Source: Streptomyces fulvoviolaceus (GTDB taxonomy: Bacteria; Actinomycetota; Actinomycetes; Streptomycetales; Streptomycetaceae). Taken from it: a DNA stretch of 64,000 nt. The notes below the pieces were generated by a model, which did not search any database, was not told where the DNA came from, and was given only the letters and a program-made list of their open reading frames with translations. Positions 23,952-32,174 of this stretch are shown piece after piece (within the stretch, counting starts at the first letter, position 1; every line of letters begins with the position of its first letter). A program made the position numbers and the translations under genes. The DNA is taken from contig NZ_JOEY01000026.1 of NCBI RefSeq assembly GCF_000718165.1, forward strand, positions 62,001 to 126,000. The letters run 5' to 3'.

Positions 23952-24746
23952 ATGCCCACTCCAGTGAGCGCGAAGCACCACCCGCACGACGACGCCCCCG
24001 ACACCGCGGACGCGTTCCGCAGTCTCGCCGAGCTCCCCGCGGGCCCGGAGCGCGACACGCTCCGCGGACAGATCGTCGAGGCCTGGCTGCCCATGGCCGA
24101 CCGGCTCGCGGGACGGTTCCGCAGCCGCGGCGAGAGCGTCGAGGACCTGCGCCAGGTCGCGGCCCTCGGCCTGGTCAAGGCCGTCGACCGGTACGACCCC
24201 GCACGCGGCAACGCCTTCGAGAGCTACGCCGTACCGACCATCACCGGCGAGATCAAGCGGCACTTCCGCGACCACATGTGGACCCTGCACGTGCCCCGCC
24301 GGGTCCAGGACCTGCGCAACCGTGTCCGCTTCGCCTGCCAGGACCTCTCGCAGACCGTCTCGGGCCGCAGGCCCACCGTCGCGGAGATCGCCGAGCACGC
24401 GCGCATGAGCGAGGAGGACGTCCTGGTCGGCCTCGAGGCCCTGGAGAGCTTCACGGCGCTGTCGCTGGACGCGGAACTGCCCGGCAGCGAGGACGGGTAC
24501 TCGCTGAGCGACGCGCTCGGCTCACCCGACCCGGCGCTGGACACGGTCGTGGACCGCGAGGCCGTGAAGCCCCGGCTGGCCGCCCTGCCCGAGCGGGAGC
24601 GGGCCATCCTCTACATGCGGTTCTTCGGCGACATGACGCAGAGCCGGATCGCCGAGCAGCTCGGCATCTCGCAGATGCACGTGTCCCGGCTGATCAACCG
24701 CTGCTGCGGGCGGATGCGCGAGCAGATCATGCGCGACGCCTCGTAG
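23952..24746 (+). CDS. SigB/SigF-type RNA polymerase sigma factor
   Basis: 264 residues. Region 2 is present (LPMADRLAGRFRSRGESVEDLRQVAALGLVKAVDRYDP, FESYAVPTITGEIKRHFRD), then region 3 (VPRRVQDLRNRV, RRPTVAEIAEHARMSEEDVLVGLEA) and region 4 (LPERERAILYMRFFGDMTQSRIAEQLGISQMHVSRLI). This is the SigB/SigF/SigG group that directs general stress and sporulation genes in Streptomyces. No anti-sigma gene adjoins it. Tandem repeats flank it on both sides. Two consensus sigma-B promoters in the window (23399-23423, 35769-35792) are candidate targets of this or a paralogous factor. Confidence 0.92.
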   Translation: MPTPVSAKHHPHDDAPDTADAFRSLAELPAGPERDTLRGQIVEAWLPMADRLAGRFRSRGESVEDLRQVAALGLVKAVDRYDPARGNAFESYAVPTITGEIKRHFRDHMWTLHVPRRVQDLRNRVRFACQDLSQTVSGRRPTVAEIAEHARMSEEDVLVGLEALESFTALSLDAELPGSEDGYSLSDALGSPDPALDTVVDREAVKPRLAALPERERAILYMRFFGDMTQSRIAEQLGISQMHVSRLINRCCGRMREQIMRDAS

Positions 24747-25008: not shown

Positions 25009-25671
25009 ATGCGCCGCACCGCCCGTGCCCTGTCCGCCGTCGCCCTGGCCGGTGCCGTCCTGGGCAGCACCGTGCCCGCCGCCTTCGCGGACCCGGCCGC
25101 GGAGGTCGACCCGAGCACCGTCTCCCCGGGCGGCAGCATCACCGTGTCGGTCACCTGCGACCCGACCGGCGGCACCCCGCCCGACACCCTCGACGCCACC
25201 TCGCAGGCCTTCGAGACGGGCACCGTCCGGCTGCAACTGGTCCCCGGCAACGAGGACGAGCTGACCGGCCCCGCCTACAGCGGCACCGCCCGGATCGCGG
25301 CCGCCGGGAACTTCGAGGAGGGCCCCGACGCGGTCGGCCGGGACTCCGCGTGGACCGTCGACGGCACTTGTCCGGCGGCGCCCGGCGGGCAGGGCAAGCC
25401 GTGGAGCGCCACGTTCGACGTCTCCCGCGGCAGTGGCGGCGGCAGCCGGTCGTGCACCGAGCCGCACGCCGATCCGCGCACCGAGCCGCAAGCCGAGCCG
25501 CGCGCCGATTCCTGCGCCAGCGCGGCCGTCCAGCGCGGGGTGCGGGCCGGCGAGGGCGGCACGTTCACGGAGTCCGTCCCCGCCCTGGTCGCCGGCGGGC
25601 TGCTGATCGCGGGCGCCATGGGAGCCGCCGTGTACCGGCTGCGGCGCAGGACACCTCCGGCCGACGCCTGA
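25009..25671 (+). CDS. Secreted protein with C-terminal membrane anchor
   Basis: 220 residues from ATG 25009, with a Sec signal peptide (VALAGAVLGSTVPAAFA). The extracellular part is Ig-like (VDPSTVSPGGSITVSVTCDP), and a charged spacer repeats EPHADPRTEPQAEPRADS. The C terminus has a membrane helix (LVAGGLLIAGAMGAAVYRL) followed by RRRT, so the protein is anchored facing out. Two Cys lie in CDP and GTCPAAP, and others in the spacer. The family is conserved in Streptomyces next to stress sigma factors as far as I recall; the function is unknown. Confidence 0.75.
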   Translation: MRRTARALSAVALAGAVLGSTVPAAFADPAAEVDPSTVSPGGSITVSVTCDPTGGTPPDTLDATSQAFETGTVRLQLVPGNEDELTGPAYSGTARIAAAGNFEEGPDAVGRDSAWTVDGTCPAAPGGQGKPWSATFDVSRGSGGGSRSCTEPHADPRTEPQAEPRADSCASAAVQRGVRAGEGGTFTESVPALVAGGLLIAGAMGAAVYRLRRRTPPADA

Positions 25672-25828
25672 CCCGGCCCGTGTGACGGGCGCAACCCGCA
25701 CGGGCGCTCATGCGCCGGCGGCGCCGTGGGTAACCACAGCGCGAGGGCACGAACCGCCCTGCACGACCGGCCGACACACCTGAGGCGACAGAGACAGCAG
25801 AAGACGAAGCCCCCTCACGGAGGTAACC

Positions 25829-27073
25829 ATGCGGACGGACCCGGAAGGCCACGGCCCCGTCCGCTACGGCCCGCCGCTCCCCGAGGACGGACTGCCCGTG
25901 CTGCCCGAGCTCACCGCCGTGCTCGCCGCGGCCGCCGCCCGCAGCCGGGCCGAGCCGGTCGGCGGCGGCACCGCCCTCCTCGAAGCCGCGTGCGGCTACG
26001 GGAACCGGCGCGGCCTGCCCGCCGAGCCCGACCATGTCGTGGCCGCCCCCGGCGCCCCGTCCCTCCTGCTCGCGCTGACCGCCGCGCTCGGCGGCGACGT
26101 CCTGGTGCCCCGGCCCTGCGCCGCCTGGTGGGCGCCGTACGCGCGCCTGTTGGGAAGACCCTTCTTCCACGTGGCGACACCGGCCGAGTGCGGCGGTGTC
26201 CCGGATCCGTACGCCCTCCTGGAGACCGTGCGCAGGGTGCGCGCCGAAGGCGGTGACCCGCGCCTCCTGGTGCTGTCCGTCGCCGACGACCCCACCGCCA
26301 CCGTCCCTCCGCCCGAGTTGCTGCACGCGACGATCGAGGCCGCCGCCGGCGAGGGCCTGCACCTGGTCAGCGACGAGACCTGGCGCGACACCCTGCACCT
26401 CCCGCACGACACCGTGCTGCTCAGCCCCGCCGAGATGCTGCCCGACCGGGTCACCGTCGTCACCGACCTGGCCGGCGCCCTGCTGCCGACCGGCTGGCCG
26501 GCCGCGATCGCCCGCTTCCCGCCGGGCGGGGCCGAGAGCGGCCTACGCGCGCGTGTGCTCGACGTGCTCACCGCGCTCGGAGCCCGGGTCGCCGCACCGG
26601 TCGCCGCGGCGGCCGCCTACGCGCTCGCGGAACCCGAGCCGGTCACCGCCCGCCTCGCCGCCGCCGTACGCCTGCACGCGCGCGTGGCCGCCGCCGCGCA
26701 CGCCGCCGTTGTCGCGGCGGGCGCGCTCTCCCGGCCCCCGCGGGCCGGCCGCCATCTCTACGTCGATCTCGGCCCCCTGCGGCCCGCGCTCACCGCGCAG
26801 GGGGTCGGCGACGCCCAGGACCTGGAGGACTTCCTCACCGCCCGGCTCGGCATGCCCGCGCCCGGCGGTCACCGCTTCGGCGACGATCTCGGGGCGCTGC
26901 GCGTACGGCTGTCCACCGGCTCGCTGCTCGGCGGCACCGACGAGGAACGCGCGGAATGCCTCACGTCACCCTCACCGTTGGAACTGCCACACGTGCAACG
27001 CGCGTTGATCACTTTGGAGTCGGTCTTCGACGAACTCCGCGACGACGCTCAGCGATGGGAGCCTCCTCGATGA
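25829..27073 (+). CDS. Aminotransferase-fold (fold type I) protein lacking lysine
   Basis: 414 residues from ATG 25829 with GGAGG upstream. The fold-type-I pattern is visible: an N-terminal ALLEAACGYGNRRGL, a glycine-rich cofactor-loop APGAPSLLLAL, an Asp-rich region and LVSDETWRDTLHLPHD. In class I aminotransferases the Schiff-base Lys follows about 25-30 residues later. Here the segment reads VTDLAGALLPTGWPAAIARFP, with Gly/Ala where S-x-x-K is expected. I find no lysine anywhere in the protein. It therefore cannot form the internal aldimine with pyridoxal phosphate and must be non-catalytic or have another chemistry. It is coupled (ATGA) to the NAPE-PLD-like gene. Confidence 0.75.
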   Translation: MRTDPEGHGPVRYGPPLPEDGLPVLPELTAVLAAAAARSRAEPVGGGTALLEAACGYGNRRGLPAEPDHVVAAPGAPSLLLALTAALGGDVLVPRPCAAWWAPYARLLGRPFFHVATPAECGGVPDPYALLETVRRVRAEGGDPRLLVLSVADDPTATVPPPELLHATIEAAAGEGLHLVSDETWRDTLHLPHDTVLLSPAEMLPDRVTVVTDLAGALLPTGWPAAIARFPPGGAESGLRARVLDVLTALGARVAAPVAAAAAYALAEPEPVTARLAAAVRLHARVAAAAHAAVVAAGALSRPPRAGRHLYVDLGPLRPALTAQGVGDAQDLEDFLTARLGMPAPGGHRFGDDLGALRVRLSTGSLLGGTDEERAECLTSPSPLELPHVQRALITLESVFDELRDDAQRWEPPR

Positions 27074-28128
27074 CGCAGCAGTCCGAGTCGACCACGAGCA
27101 CGCCCACCCAGGAAGCCGACGATCCGGCGGTCCTGTCCTCCTTCGCTCCGTCCCCGCCCCTCACCGAACCCCGCCCGCCGGGCGAGCGGCGGGTGTGGCC
27201 GCGGTCCTTCCACGACCGCCTGACCGCCCCGCTGCCCGGTCTCAAGGCCATGGCCCGGTTCGCCCGAGAGGGCTCCGTACGACCGGGACGCGAAGGCCTC
27301 GCGGACATCCCCCGGCTGCCCTTCGAGCCCGCCCCGCTGCCCGCCGTCGACGCGCGCACCGTCGCCGTCTCCTGGGCGGGACACGCCAGCTGGGTCATCA
27401 GGATCGGCGGGCTGACCGTCCTCACCGACCCGGTCTGGTCCCGCCGCATCCTCGGCACCCCGGCCCGCATCACCCCGGTCGGCATCCCCTGGAACTCGCT
27501 GCCCCGCATCGACGCGGTCGTCATCAGCCACAACCACTACGACCACCTGGACGCCCCCACCCTGCGCCGCCTCCCGCGCGACACCCCCGTGTTCGCGCCG
27601 GCCGGGCTCGCTCGCTGGTTCCGCCGCCGCCGGTTCACCGCGGTCACCGAACTGGACTGGTGGGAGGCGGCCGAACTGGGCGGCGTCCGCTTCGACTTCG
27701 TGCCCGCCCACCACTGGTCCAAGCGCTCCCTCGTCGACACCTGTCGCACCCTGTGGGGCGGCTGGGTCCTCACCGCCCCCGACGGACAGCGCGTCTACTT
27801 CGCGGGCGACACGGGCTACGGCCACTGGTTCGCCCGCATCGGCCGCCGCTACCCCGGCATCGACCTCGCCCTGCTCCCCATCGGCGCCTACGACCCCCGC
27901 TGGTGGCTCAGCGACGTCCACTGCGACCCGGAGGAGGCGGTGCGAGCGGCCCAGGACCTGGGTGCGCGCCGCATGGCACCGATGCACTGGGCGACGTTCG
28001 TGTTGTCGGCGGAACCGGTACTGGAGCCGCTCACGCGGGTGCGGGCGGCGTGGGAGAAGGCGGGGTTGGACAGGGAGGACCTGTGGGACCTGCCAGTTGG
28101 AGGCTCACGCGTACTGCAGCTGACCTAG
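27070..28128 (+). CDS. NAPE-PLD-like metallo-beta-lactamase-fold hydrolase
   Basis: 352 residues from ATG 27070, whose first bases overlap the preceding stop. The metal motif is SHNHYDHLD. Several further stretches match the N-acyl-phosphatidylethanolamine phospholipase D family closely: LTDPVWSRR, PRIDAVVISHNHYDHLD, ELDWWE, HHWSKRSLVD, FAGDTGYG and LLPIGAYDPRWW...DPEEAVR...MHWATF. The family cleaves N-acyl-PE to release N-acylethanolamine and phosphatidic acid; bacterial homologues are mostly uncharacterised. No signal peptide is seen. The adjacent lysine-free aminotransferase-like gene suggests a paired function. A DedA and another MBL-fold gene lie on the opposite strand just downstream. 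Confidence 0.88.
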   Translation: MTQQSESTTSTPTQEADDPAVLSSFAPSPPLTEPRPPGERRVWPRSFHDRLTAPLPGLKAMARFAREGSVRPGREGLADIPRLPFEPAPLPAVDARTVAVSWAGHASWVIRIGGLTVLTDPVWSRRILGTPARITPVGIPWNSLPRIDAVVISHNHYDHLDAPTLRRLPRDTPVFAPAGLARWFRRRRFTAVTELDWWEAAELGGVRFDFVPAHHWSKRSLVDTCRTLWGGWVLTAPDGQRVYFAGDTGYGHWFARIGRRYPGIDLALLPIGAYDPRWWLSDVHCDPEEAVRAAQDLGARRMAPMHWATFVLSAEPVLEPLTRVRAAWEKAGLDREDLWDLPVGGSRVLQLT

Positions 28129-28183: not shown

Positions 28184-28804
28184 TCACCTGGCAGATCGAA
28201 CCCGTCTCCACACACTCGGCGCAGCGCTGATCGTAAGGGTCAGCGCGACCGCCGCCACCACACCTTCCCAAGGCTCGTTGAACAGCGACCCACCAAGAAT
28301 CCCGATCAGCTGATACGTCACTGCCCACGCCAGGCAGGCCGGTAGATTCCCCCGCGCAAACCGCCGCAACGGCCACTCGGCCATCAGGCAAGCCAACATC
28401 ACCGGAATCCGCCCCGCCGGCACCAGCCGAGACAACACCAGCACAGCCACACCATGATCCGCCAACTTCGCCTGCGCCTGCGCAAGCCTCTCCTCCGGCG
28501 CCCGCGACCGAATCGCCTCCAGCCACCGAGACCCGTTCCGCGATCCCATCCCACGCCGCCCGAGCCAGTACAACGCCATGTCCCCGAGGAACGCCGCCAG
28601 CGAGGCCGTAACAAAAACCAGCGCCAACGCGAACGGCGCCGTCTGATGAAACGCCACCACAGCCGCCGTACTCACCAACGCCCCCGTCGGCACCACCGGC
28701 ACCAACGCCCCGAGCAGCACCAGCAGAAACAACGTCGGATACCCGATCGCCTGCTGCGTGGACTCGGGCGTCACACCCGTCGAGGCCGCGGCCAGCAGCA
28801 TCAC
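28184..28804 (-). CDS. DedA family membrane protein
   Basis: 206 residues; start GTG 28804 overlaps the upstream gene's stop (GTGA), with ATG 28801 an alternative. Four to five hydrophobic helices are present. The DedA signatures are a first re-entrant segment (VPVVPTGALVSTAAVVAFH), GDMALYWLGRRGMGSRNG and SRLVPAGRIPVMLACLMAEWPLRRFARGN. DedA proteins are thought to flip or translocate phospholipid and undecaprenyl phosphate. It is cotranscribed with the MBL-fold gene upstream. Confidence 0.88.
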   Translation of the reverse strand: MMLLAAASTGVTPESTQQAIGYPTLFLLVLLGALVPVVPTGALVSTAAVVAFHQTAPFALALVFVTASLAAFLGDMALYWLGRRGMGSRNGSRWLEAIRSRAPEERLAQAQAKLADHGVAVLVLSRLVPAGRIPVMLACLMAEWPLRRFARGNLPACLAWAVTYQLIGILGGSLFNEPWEGVVAAVALTLTISAAPSVWRRVRSAR

Positions 28805-29574
28805 CGTGCGACCTCCAGCCGCACACTCTCCCCGTGCTCCAGCCGGTGCACGGCGACCCCGGGCGCGTACTCCGCCGCCAACCGCACGAACTCCGCACCC
28901 GGCGCGTGGAATTCGTGCGGGCGCACCGCGTCCATCGCGATGGGCCAGTACGTGCCGTAGTGCACCGGCACCGCGCTGCGCGGTGCCAGCCGGGCCAGCG
29001 CCTGGGCCGCGCGCCCCGCGTCCAGGTGCCCCTCGCCGAGGTACGGCCCCCAGCCGCCGACCGGCAGCAGCGCCACGTCGACCGGTCCGACCTCCTTGGC
29101 CATGTCGTCGAAGAGGCCGGTGTCCCCGGCGAAGTAGGTGCGCCCCTCACCTTCGACGACGTATCCGAGCGCGGGGGAGCGGTGCGGTCCGACCGGCAGC
29201 CGCCGCCCGTCGTGCCGCGCGGGCACGGCCCGTATCACCAGGTCACCGACCTGTGTCTCGTCCCCGGGGGCCACCTCGGCGACCTGGAGGTGGGTGAGCC
29301 GGCGCAGCGCCGGCACCGCCCGTGGTGCGCCCCGGGGCACGAGCAGGTGCGTGCCCGGGGCGAGCCGCGCCAGCGAGGGAACGTGCAGGTGGTCGGCGTG
29401 CAGATGGGAGACGAGTGCGACGTCCGCGCACCAGGCGCCGGGCGGCGGCACCGCACCACGTCGGCGGCGCAGATGCGCGAGGCGGCGGGCGAACAGAGGG
29501 TCGGTGAGCACGCGTACGTCCGAATCCGTGACCGTGCAGGTGGCGTGACCCCACCAGGTGATCTCCACCGGCAC
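28801..29574 (-). CDS. MBL-fold metallo-hydrolase (UlaG/YtxJ-like)
   Basis: 257 residues from GTG 29574 with GGAGG upstream. WWGHATCTVTDSDVRVLTDPLF, SHLHADHLH (metal ligands), VPARHDG and YFAGDTGLFDDM are the signature of the UPF0173/UlaG-like metal-dependent hydrolases. The substrate is unknown. It differs from the NAPE-PLD-like protein at 27.1 kb. It forms a two-gene unit with DedA. Confidence 0.85.
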   Translation of the reverse strand: MPVEITWWGHATCTVTDSDVRVLTDPLFARRLAHLRRRRGAVPPPGAWCADVALVSHLHADHLHVPSLARLAPGTHLLVPRGAPRAVPALRRLTHLQVAEVAPGDETQVGDLVIRAVPARHDGRRLPVGPHRSPALGYVVEGEGRTYFAGDTGLFDDMAKEVGPVDVALLPVGGWGPYLGEGHLDAGRAAQALARLAPRSAVPVHYGTYWPIAMDAVRPHEFHAPGAEFVRLAAEYAPGVAVHRLEHGESVRLEVAR

Positions 29575-30128: not shown

Positions 30129-32174
30129 GTGCGTGGAGGGCGTTGGCGGCGGGTCGCCAGTCAGGTCGGCCGGAGCGTCGCGGTGTGGGTCGTCTCCACC
30201 CTCACGATGCTCGTCCTGGCAGGCATCCTGCCGGACTTCCGGCTCCAGTCCGTGGACGGCGACAGCGCCACCCGGATCGCCGTCACCGCGGCGTTCGGCG
30301 CCGGCGCCTTCGGTGTGCTGTCGGCCCTCGTCTGGCCGCTTCTCGTACGGCTGCTGCTGCTCGTGCCCGCGCTCGTGCTCGGGCTGCTGGTCTTCTTCCT
30401 CAACGGCGCGCTGCTGCTGATCGCGCTGCGCCTCAACCCCGCCGAGCGCGGCGACGCCGCCCCGGAGACCGCGGTCGTGGTCGCCGCCGTGATGTCCGCC
30501 GTCGCCTCCGCCACGGGTGGTGCGCTGGCCGTGCGCGACGACGACGCCTACCGGCGCCGGCTGTACCGCCTCGCCGACCGCCGCCGGGGCACCGGTCCGG
30601 CCATCCCCGCCACCCCCGGCATGGTCTTCATCCAGCTCGACGGCGTCGGCCACGACGTACTGACGGCCGCGGTGGGCAAGGGGCTGATGCCCACCGTCGC
30701 CAAGTGGCTGGGGGGCACCCACCGGCTCACCCCCTGGCGCACCGACTGGTCCAGCCAGACCGGCGCCAGCCAGCTCGGCATCCTGCACGGCAGCAACCAC
30801 GACGTCCCCGCCTTCCGCTGGTACGAGAAGGACACCGGGGAGGTGATGGTCAGCAACCGCCCGACCAGCGCCGCCGAACTCCAGCGCCGCGCCGTCGAGC
30901 GCACCGGCCACGGCGGGCTGCTCAGCGTCGACGGTGCCAGCCGCGGCAACCTCTTCGGCGGCGGCGCCGACGAGCAGGCCCTCGTCCTGTCCATCGCCAC
31001 CCGCCGCCGCAGCCGCGAGAACCGCTCCCGGGCGGGCTACTTCGCCTACTTCTCCGACCCGGCCAACGCCGTGCGCACCGCCATGTCCTTCGTCGCCGAG
31101 GTCGGCCGCGAGATCGGCCAGTCCACCCGTGCCCGCGTCCGCAAGGTGCGCCCGCGCGTGGGCCGCGGCGGCCTCTACCCCTTCGTCCGCGCCTTCGCGA
31201 CCGTCGTCGAACGCGACGTCGTGGTCGCCGCGGTGATGGGCGACATGCTCGCCGGCCGCACCGCCGTCTACGCCGACCTCGTGGCGTACGACGAAGTGGC
31301 ACACCACTCCGGGCCGATGAGCCGCGACGCGGAGAAGGTGCTCGAACGCCTCGACCGCTCCCTCGCGTTGATCGAGCAGATCGCGGAGCACGCCCCGCGC
31401 GCGTACCGGATCGTCGTGCTGTCCGACCACGGCCAGAGCCCCGGCGAGACCTTCCGCACCCGCTACGGCCTCACCCTCGGCGACCTGGTCCGGGCCGGCT
31501 CCGGGCTGCCCGTGCCGCGCAAGGCCGAGCGCACTCACAGCGGCGCGGAGGCTCGCGCGGCGGTACGTGCGGCACTGCGGCGGCCGGTCGAGGAGAGGCG
31601 CGAGCACCGGCCCGCTCGCCGCGGTTCCGAGCCGATCGTGTTGGCCTCCGGCAACCTCGGTCTGGTGTCCTTCCCGGATGTGCCGCACCGGATGTCCAAG
31701 GAGGAGATCGATGCGCGGCATCCTGCTCTGCTGACGACGCTTGCCAACCATCCCGGGATCGGGTTTCTTCTCGTGCGGAGCGAAGAGCATGGTGGGGTGG
31801 TGCTCGGGCCGTTCGGTACGGAGATCCCTCTGGGGCAACTCGACGACGAGCCGGGCCCGTTGGCGGACTTCGGGCCGGGCGTGGCCGACGTGGTCCGCCG
31901 GACGCACTCCTTTCCGCACACCGCCGACATCATGGTGAACTCCTGGTACGACCCGGTCGAGGGCGAGGTCCTTGCCTTCGAGGAGCAGATCGGTTCGCAC
32001 GGGGGACTCGGGGGTGCGCAGGGGAAGCCGTTCTTGCTGTCGCCGGTCGCGCTGTCCGAGCCGCCCGAGGAAATCGCCGGGGCGGAGCAGATCCACCGGG
32101 TGCTGCGTGGTTGGCTCGATGAGGCGGGCGGACCCCAAGTGCCGTTGCCTGCTCGGCAGGAGAGGGCCGCGTAG
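30129..32174 (+). CDS. Holin-4-like membrane domain fused to an alkaline-phosphatase-superfamily domain
   Basis: 681 residues from GTG 30129. About 130 N-terminal residues form four membrane helices (VAVWVVSTLTMLVLAGILP, VLSALVWPLLVRLLLLVPALVLGLLVFFLNGALLLIAL) of the kind labelled phage-holin-4_2. From about residue 155 the protein is a type I phosphodiesterase/alkaline-phosphatase fold: FIQLDGVGHD, TDWSSQTGASQ (metal and nucleophile Thr/Ser region), YDEVAHHSGP and VLSDHGQSPGETF. It is likely a membrane-anchored phosphodiesterase or phosphatase acting on lipid-linked or cell-wall substrates. No phage genes are near, so the holin label is not evidence of a prophage. Confidence 0.82.
   Translation: MRGGRWRRVASQVGRSVAVWVVSTLTMLVLAGILPDFRLQSVDGDSATRIAVTAAFGAGAFGVLSALVWPLLVRLLLLVPALVLGLLVFFLNGALLLIALRLNPAERGDAAPETAVVVAAVMSAVASATGGALAVRDDDAYRRRLYRLADRRRGTGPAIPATPGMVFIQLDGVGHDVLTAAVGKGLMPTVAKWLGGTHRLTPWRTDWSSQTGASQLGILHGSNHDVPAFRWYEKDTGEVMVSNRPTSAAELQRRAVERTGHGGLLSVDGASRGNLFGGGADEQALVLSIATRRRSRENRSRAGYFAYFSDPANAVRTAMSFVAEVGREIGQSTRARVRKVRPRVGRGGLYPFVRAFATVVERDVVVAAVMGDMLAGRTAVYADLVAYDEVAHHSGPMSRDAEKVLERLDRSLALIEQIAEHAPRAYRIVVLSDHGQSPGETFRTRYGLTLGDLVRAGSGLPVPRKAERTHSGAEARAAVRAALRRPVEERREHRPARRGSEPIVLASGNLGLVSFPDVPHRMSKEEIDARHPALLTTLANHPGIGFLLVRSEEHGGVVLGPFGTEIPLGQLDDEPGPLADFGPGVADVVRRTHSFPHTADIMVNSWYDPVEGEVLAFEEQIGSHGGLGGAQGKPFLLSPVALSEPPEEIAGAEQIHRVLRGWLDEAGGPQVPLPARQERAA

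What the first reader, a model, noticed from the sequence alone, without database searches (positions are those of the whole stretch)
25829..28128. Lysine-free aminotransferase-fold protein coupled to a NAPE-PLD homologue
I find no lysine in 414 residues, and the Schiff-base position reads DLAGALLPTGW. A loss of all lysines is far below expectation even for a high-GC genome and implies more than loss of catalysis. Its stop overlaps the start of a hydrolase closely matching NAPE-PLD motifs (ELDWWE, HHWSKR, PIGAYDPRWW). The pair may be a new two-protein system for amino-phospholipids. A lysine-free protein would also resist lysine-directed modification.
Basis: partly seen in the sequence, partly recalled or inferred. 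Interest (0 to 1): 0.75.

Follow-up and report, generated by a model that had tools for sequence, protein, structure and literature searches.

The report
Dead aminotransferase paired with NAPE-PLD-like hydrolase
Streptomyces and close relatives keep a protein that looks like an aminotransferase but has lost the parts needed to hold and use vitamin B6, and its gene usually lies directly before a gene for an intact lipid-hydrolase-like enzyme, although databases still name it a B6-dependent enzyme.

Summary
In detail: 25829-27073(+) encodes 414 aa without lysine, class I aminotransferase fold, Gly at the Schiff-base position; its stop overlaps the ATG of a NAPE-PLD-like hydrolase (27070-28128). 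The strong result is the catalytic site. In 75 of 75 aligned clade members (window included) it is Gly/Ala/Ser; in 23 of 23 sister-clade rows (38-46% identity) it is Lys; the tree puts all Lys rows on one side of one branch (100/100). All 75 also lack Tyr41, Lys77, Trp98 and Asn154, invariant in the sister clade; Asp154 is fixed in their place. dN/dS 0.09-0.33 shows constraint. The hydrolase gene follows in 67 of 75, against 0 of 23; its metal ligands are kept in 181 of 181 loci. Eight of 75 loci keep the aminotransferase without the hydrolase. Best reading: a repurposed, PLP-dead pseudo-aminotransferase co-expressed with the hydrolase and possibly serving it. Ligand, interaction and lipid role are untested.

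The parts
25829..27073 (+). Pseudo-aminotransferase (class I fold, 414 aa, no Lys)
26474..26476 (+). Codon 216 (GGC, Gly) at the place of the Schiff-base Lys
   Evidence: Lys 23 of 23 in the sister clade, G/A/S 75 of 75 in this clade
26288..26290 (+). Codon 154: Asp in place of the PLP-binding Asn (AspAT N194)
   Evidence: D 75 of 75; N 23 of 23 in the sister clade. In a second set D 69, E 2, G 1 of 72
26498..26500 (+). Codon 224: Pro in place of the PLP-phosphate-binding Arg (AspAT R266)
   Evidence: P 74 of 75 (Arg in L088); R 23 of 23 in the sister clade
26465..26467 (+). Codon 213: Asp in place of Gly
   Evidence: D 72 of 75; G 23 of 23 in the sister clade
26372..26374 (+). Codon 182: Asp kept (AspAT D222)
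   Evidence: D 75 of 75 and 23 of 23
26900..26902 (+). Codon 358: Arg kept (probable substrate-carboxylate Arg, AspAT R386, by motif)
   Evidence: R 71 of 75, H 4
27070..28128 (+). NAPE-PLD-like metallo-beta-lactamase-fold hydrolase, 352 aa
   Evidence: NAPE-PLD 4qn9 E 2e-60, query residues 96-349; seven metal-ligand positions kept in 181 of 181 loci
27070..27073 (+). ATGA stop/start overlap (translational coupling expected)
   Evidence: same offset in 16 of 75 clade loci, window included; elsewhere the match starts later or the N-terminus does not align
25709..25732 (+). Promoter-like element CATG-N15-GGGTA, about 100 bases upstream
   Evidence: CATG-N14/15-GGGTA in 23 of 75 upstream regions (400 bases), shuffles mean 0.14, max 2; 2 sites in 800,000 strand-bases of this genome. 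Pattern found post hoc

Best explanation
The gene encodes a pseudo-aminotransferase. A PLP-dependent class I aminotransferase, of a type that actinomycetes still have with an intact cofactor site, lost its Schiff-base Lys once in the ancestry of the Streptomyces family and was then altered further and kept (shown by comparison). It cannot form the internal aldimine and has lost most anchors for PLP (inferred from sequence). Asn154 to Asp and Gly213 to Asp, together with loss of Lys77, Lys216 and Arg224, make acidic a site that held an anionic cofactor, while Asp182 and Arg358 stay; I infer that it now binds a small amine or amino-acid-like ligand, or a protein surface. It is translated just before, and probably from the same transcript as, an intact NAPE-PLD-like zinc hydrolase. 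Its most likely role is a non-catalytic partner or ligand sensor that acts with or regulates that hydrolase in membrane-lipid turnover, with some role of its own because it outlives the hydrolase in several loci. Shown: lost site, constraint, linkage. Inferred: ligand, interaction, lipid pathway.
For: Catalytic column never Lys in 75 clade rows, Lys in 23 of 23 sister rows, one change on the tree. In 99 proteins of a second search, 27 have Lys and all of Tyr41, Lys77, Trp98, Asn154, Gly213, Arg224; 72 have G, A, S, P, F or E there and all 72 lack Tyr41, Lys77, Trp98 and Asn154. dN/dS 0.09-0.33 in 17 pairs, like the sister clade's 0.05-0.35 in 7. Confident aminotransferase fold. Same-strand hydrolase directly downstream in 67 of 75, none in 23 sister loci, and in 107 of 110 more loci, partly the same genomes. 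Promoter-like element in 23 of 75. Hydrolase metal ligands 181 of 181.
Against: Kept without the hydrolase in 8 of 75 loci; in 25 of 199 Streptomyces genomes a match to it comes with no hydrolase match better than about 1e-47; over the 199, co-occurrence is only modestly non-random (160/25/9/5, Fisher p 0.04, not corrected for kinship). No evidence of physical interaction, ligand or lipid activity. The promoter-like element was found only at 73% identity or more. Some residues fixed in the clade (Glu170, Leu266) also occur in part of the Lys-bearing rows (E 9, L 18 of 27), so they are not innovations.
Confidence: 0.5

Rival explanations
1. A pseudo-aminotransferase with a function of its own; the hydrolase is a separate enzyme that merely shares a transcript.
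For: Kept without the hydrolase in 8 of 75 loci, open and Lys-free at the site (L017, L062, L067, L069, L072-L075); the hydrolase without it in 9 of 199 genomes, of which at least 3 have the match at the very end of a contig.
Against: Adjacency in 67 of 75 and absent from 23 sister loci; stop/start overlap in 16 of 75. As far as sampled, gain of the neighbour and loss of the Lys fall on the same branch.
Confidence: 0.3
2. A new enzyme: the fold catalyses another reaction, without PLP or with PLP/PMP bound non-covalently, using the acidic site (Asp154, Asp182, Glu183, Asp213) and Arg358.
For: Asp154 in 75 of 75, Asp182 and Glu183 in 75 of 75, Asp213 in 72 of 75: constraint, not decay. Some fold type I enzymes work with His in place of the Lys (ColD, from recall).
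Against: The catalytic column drifts among G, A, S, P, F, E, and positions 41, 77 and 98 drift too; a PLP or PMP enzyme is therefore unlikely.
Confidence: 0.15
3. Lysine-freeness is itself selected, so that the protein resists lysine-directed modification.
For: Clade mean 0.45 Lys per 411 aa, 48 of 75 with none; lower than three control families chosen for zero Lys here (0.10 against 0.16, 0.30, 0.47 per 100 aa).
Against: 27 of 75 have 1-3 Lys, 11 of 75 at residue 397; the ROK control is close (18 of 30 zero); the sister clade is Lys-poor; 6 of 172 large genes of this genome have none.
Confidence: 0.04
4. Decaying pseudogene or assembly error.
For: Split or truncated reading in single genomes (G005/L035, G010/L041).
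Against: Full-length open rows in 75 loci, dN/dS about 0.2, Asp154 fixed.
Confidence: 0.01

Closest known systems
Class I aspartate/prephenate aminotransferases (Thermus AspAT 1bjw, Arabidopsis PPA-AT 5wmh, Rhizobium 6f77)
   Different: No Schiff-base Lys and no Y70, W140, N194, R266 equivalents
Lys-bearing sister clade (L036-L038, L091-L110; database hits named Micromonospora, Nonomuraea, Amycolatopsis, Actinoplanes, Embleya)
   Same: 38-46% identity to the window protein, same length
   Different: Full PLP signature; no hydrolase match in 23 loci; two of two scanned neighbours are AMP-binding ligases (L097, L102)
LCB1/SPTLC1, non-catalytic subunit of serine palmitoyltransferase
   Same: Related to PLP enzymes, lacks the PLP Lys, works in a lipid enzyme (PMC3794620, passages read)
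   Different: Its partner is its catalytic paralogue; here the neighbour is an unrelated zinc hydrolase
NAPE-PLD (PDB 4qn9)
   Same: Hydrolase neighbour: aligned over query residues 96-349, all seven metal ligands, ELDWWE, HW-KR and PIGAY-PRW motifs
   Different: Bacterial, unaligned N-terminal 95 residues; substrate unknown

Membership tests
PLP-dependent class I/II aminotransferases | Fold type I chain | tested here: met
PLP-dependent class I/II aminotransferases | Schiff-base Lys | tested here: not met
   0 of 75 clade rows; also 0 of the 7 left-out clade loci that reach the site (L035, L051, L070, L082, L084, L087, L089)
PLP-dependent class I/II aminotransferases | PLP ring and phosphate contacts (Y70, W140, N194, R266 equivalents) | tested here: not met
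   first three absent in 75 of 75, the Arg in 74 of 75; the D222 equivalent is kept
PLP-dependent class I/II aminotransferases | PLP binding and transaminase activity | not testable with these tools
   Needs protein
NAPE-PLD-like hydrolases (27070-28128) | Similarity over the catalytic domain | tested here: met
   E 2e-60
NAPE-PLD-like hydrolases (27070-28128) | Seven zinc ligands (H185, H187, D189, H190, H253, D284, H343; role from recall, positions counted) | tested here: met
   181 of 181 loci, some fetched twice
NAPE-PLD-like hydrolases (27070-28128) | Hydrolysis of N-acyl-phosphatidylethanolamine | not testable with these tools
   No assay
Obligate two-protein system | Genes always together | tested here: not met
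   67 of 75 together; 8 of 75 aminotransferase alone

The most novel reading that the evidence does not exclude
A bacterial NAPE-PLD-like phospholipase governed by a repurposed aminotransferase: the former PLP pocket, now acidic, senses an amine head group (ethanolamine or an amino acid) and switches the hydrolase. It would be a pseudo-aminotransferase acting as subunit of an unrelated lipid enzyme.
Probability: 0.2. Interest if true: 0.75.

Novelty: new variant of a known kind. Interest (0 to 1): 0.5.

Why it matters
Source databases name these proteins PLP-dependent aminotransferases, a few aminopeptidase; by sequence they cannot be Schiff-base enzymes. A genus-wide pseudoenzyme with an intact sister clade and intermediate forms (P0121-P0125, of which P0121 is L088, keep the phosphate Arg but have Ser, Pro or Ala for the Lys) lets the loss of a cofactor be followed step by step. 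If it serves the hydrolase, it would link amine sensing to bacterial membrane-lipid cleavage and offer a bacterial model for NAPE-PLD.

Tried and rejected
A Sigma-B-type pattern G[GT]TT-N12-18-GGGTA[ACT] is in 0 of 75 upstream regions; CATG-N14/15-GGGTA came from looking at the GGGTA hits, so it is post hoc, and shuffles ignore kinship. I first took Glu170 and Leu266 as clade innovations; one search shows both in part of the Lys-bearing rows, so I dropped that. I considered naming the sigma gene 23964-24746 SigK and the locus S. coelicolor SCO652x from recall; not verified. Six papers hold SCO6520 and none of them SCO6521-SCO6525 (listing); passages of two were seen and do not speak of these genes. 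CcbF/LmbF (PMC11794154, passages) are described with a catalytic Lys, so they are no precedent. The review PMC9309667 (search for four terms) has no 'pseudoenzyme' or 'non-catalytic'. Order-level search with a clade profile: 178 of 197 genomes match at 1e-30, all of the window's genus; the 19 without are 3 of that genus, 1 of another genus of the family and 15 of other families. So no clade member was seen outside the family, on a small sample. A plasmid search gave 30 records, all under 60% identity, state of the site not read.

No paper on this family was seen in searches (titles and abstract starts only, open-access library; several listings were capped).

Rows left out: of 110 loci held, 98 were aligned; L002, L003, L035, L040, L041, L042, L051, L070, L082, L084, L087, L089 fell out by length or coverage and were read: seven reach the site and have G, A or P; L040 and L041 do not reach it; L003 and L042 (26% identity, other aminotransferases) have Lys; L002 gave no match. 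The tree kept the catalytic column in, and flags L088 as a long branch of unsure place. Lys controls were 3 of the 5 other zero-Lys genes. dN/dS is Nei-Gojobori on chosen close pairs. The gene caller is my own simple one; it missed the VTT gene of the window, which I added by hand.

Full report

Orthologues. Of 1928 database relatives the best 120 (83-100% identity) were read: Lys count 0 in 41, 1 in 68, 2 in 7, 3 in 4, mostly at residue 397/398 near the C-terminus. A wider set came from 61 genomes, 150 genomes of the family and stretches fetched from them. Of 110 loci, 98 gave a full-length row. By identity alone they part in two: 75 rows of 49.7-100% with Gly 61, Ala 12, Ser 2 at residue 216, and 23 rows of 38.6-45.7% with Lys in all 23. 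The 12 left out are told under Tried and rejected. In 110 more loci (30, 80; partly the same genomes) residue 216 is Gly in 109 and Ala in 1.

One loss. In an IQ-TREE of the 98 rows the Lys rows are one side of one branch (100/100; in 100% of 200 bootstrap trees). That this is a loss and not a gain rests on ordinary aminotransferases having the Lys. L088 (identical to P0121, named Wenjunlia tyrosinilytica) sits next to the Lys clade, on a long branch; it has Ser for Lys, keeps GGWR and already has the hydrolase. L089 is similar: Ala for Lys, Arg kept, hydrolase present. A search from L088 added 99 proteins, P0121-P0219: 27 with Lys and, in 27 of 27, Tyr41, Lys77, Trp98, Asn154, Tyr185, Gly213 and Arg224; 72 without, of which 72 lack Tyr41, Lys77, Trp98 and Asn154, 69 have Asp154 (Glu 2, Gly 1), 68 Asp213, 66 Pro224 and 5 Arg224. 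Hits named Micromonospora, Nonomuraea, Amycolatopsis, Actinoplanes and Embleya are among the Lys-bearing ones.

An altered site. 23 Lys rows against 75 clade rows: residue 41 Tyr 23 / no Tyr; 77 Lys 23 / no Lys; 98 Trp 23 / Ala 45, Pro 24, others 6; 154 Asn 23 / Asp 75; 185 Tyr 23 / Trp 57, Tyr 11, others 7; 213 Gly 23 / Asp 72, Gly 3; 224 Arg 23 / Pro 74, Arg 1; 309 Tyr 23 / His 67; 182 Asp in all; 358 Arg 22 / Arg 71. Arg110 is in 74 of 75 and in 0 of 23. Glu170 and Leu266 are fixed in the clade but also occur in part of the Lys-bearing rows, so they are not counted as new. The pig AspAT numbers (Y70, W140, N194, D222, Y225, K258, R266, R386) are recalled; the columns agree with the Thermus alignment except R386, which lies beyond it and is by motif. 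Net, three positive residues go and two acidic ones come where PLP sat. dN/dS is 0.09-0.33 for 17 pairs, for the hydrolase 0.09-0.39 in the 15 of these that have it, for the sister clade 0.05-0.35 in 7.

Lysine content. Of 172 called genes of at least 300 aa in the window and 20 stretches of this genome, 6 have no Lys: this one and five that look, by eye, like ROK, AraC-like, LysR-like, alpha-E-like and LuxR-like proteins; the 5% quantile of Lys content is 0.26%. The clade mean is 0.45 Lys per protein, the sister clade's 4.5. In relatives: this family 0.10 Lys per 100 aa (21 of 32 zero), ROK 0.16 (18 of 30), LysR 0.30 (2 of 15), AraC 0.47 (4 of 30), hydrolase 0.82 (0 of 31). The family thus lies at the poor end of a continuum; the one loss that carries meaning is the catalytic Lys.

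The neighbour and the block. The hydrolase lies on the same strand within 550 bases downstream in 67 of 75 and shows no match in any of 23 sister loci of 7-11 kb; in the second set 107 of 110, two of the three misses having under 100 bases of flank. L017, L062, L067, L069 and L072-L075 have the aminotransferase without it. Over 199 Streptomyces genomes: aminotransferase match at 1e-40 in 185, hydrolase match at 1e-90 or better in 169; both 160, aminotransferase only 25, hydrolase only 9, neither 5 (read by me; Fisher p 0.04; the 185 may hold some sister-clade matches). In 36 larger clade loci a VTT-domain (DedA-type) gene is found in 20, the second MBL gene in 20, the phosphodiesterase gene in 18, the sigma gene in 6 (the loci are short, so these are lower bounds). 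In the two sister loci whose upstream neighbour was scanned (L097, L102) it is an AMP-binding ligase, which suggests specialised metabolism.

Regulation. CATG-N14/15-GGGTA precedes the gene in 23 of 75, all of 73% identity or more, at varying distance, against a shuffle mean of 0.14 and 0 of 23 sister genes; it is the only such site in the window. The GGGTA part resembles the -10 of stress-type sigma promoters (recall).

Judgement. Dead as a Schiff-base enzyme: about 95%. A kept, functional pseudoenzyme: about 90%. A working partner of the hydrolase: about 45%. An amine or aminophospholipid sensor: about 20%.

Noticed in passing
window 28184-28804 (-) and 28801-29574 (-): A VTT-domain (DedA-type) gene overlapping a second MBL-fold gene, convergent with the pair; each found in 20 of 36 larger clade loci.
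   Followed up: partly
window 30183-32174 (+): One protein with a Phage_holin_4_2 part and a Phosphodiest domain, found downstream in 18 of 36 larger clade loci.
   Followed up: no
L102, L097 (also L036, L091 by eye): Lys-bearing sister aminotransferases beside AMP-binding ligases (scanned in two) and, by eye, carrier-protein-like genes, as in specialised metabolism clusters.
   Followed up: partly
P0121-P0125; L088, L089: Early forms with Ser, Pro or Ala for the catalytic Lys but the phosphate-binding Arg kept.
   Followed up: partly
L035 (G005), L041 (G010): Aminotransferase reading split or cut short in single genomes; L035 also lacks the hydrolase.
   Followed up: no
window and L111-L130, own genome: 6 of 172 called large genes have no lysine; most of the others look by eye like regulators.
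   Followed up: partly
window 25009-25671 (+): A secreted-looking protein without a Pfam match upstream of the pair; no relative of it seen in the 36 larger clade loci.
   Followed up: no
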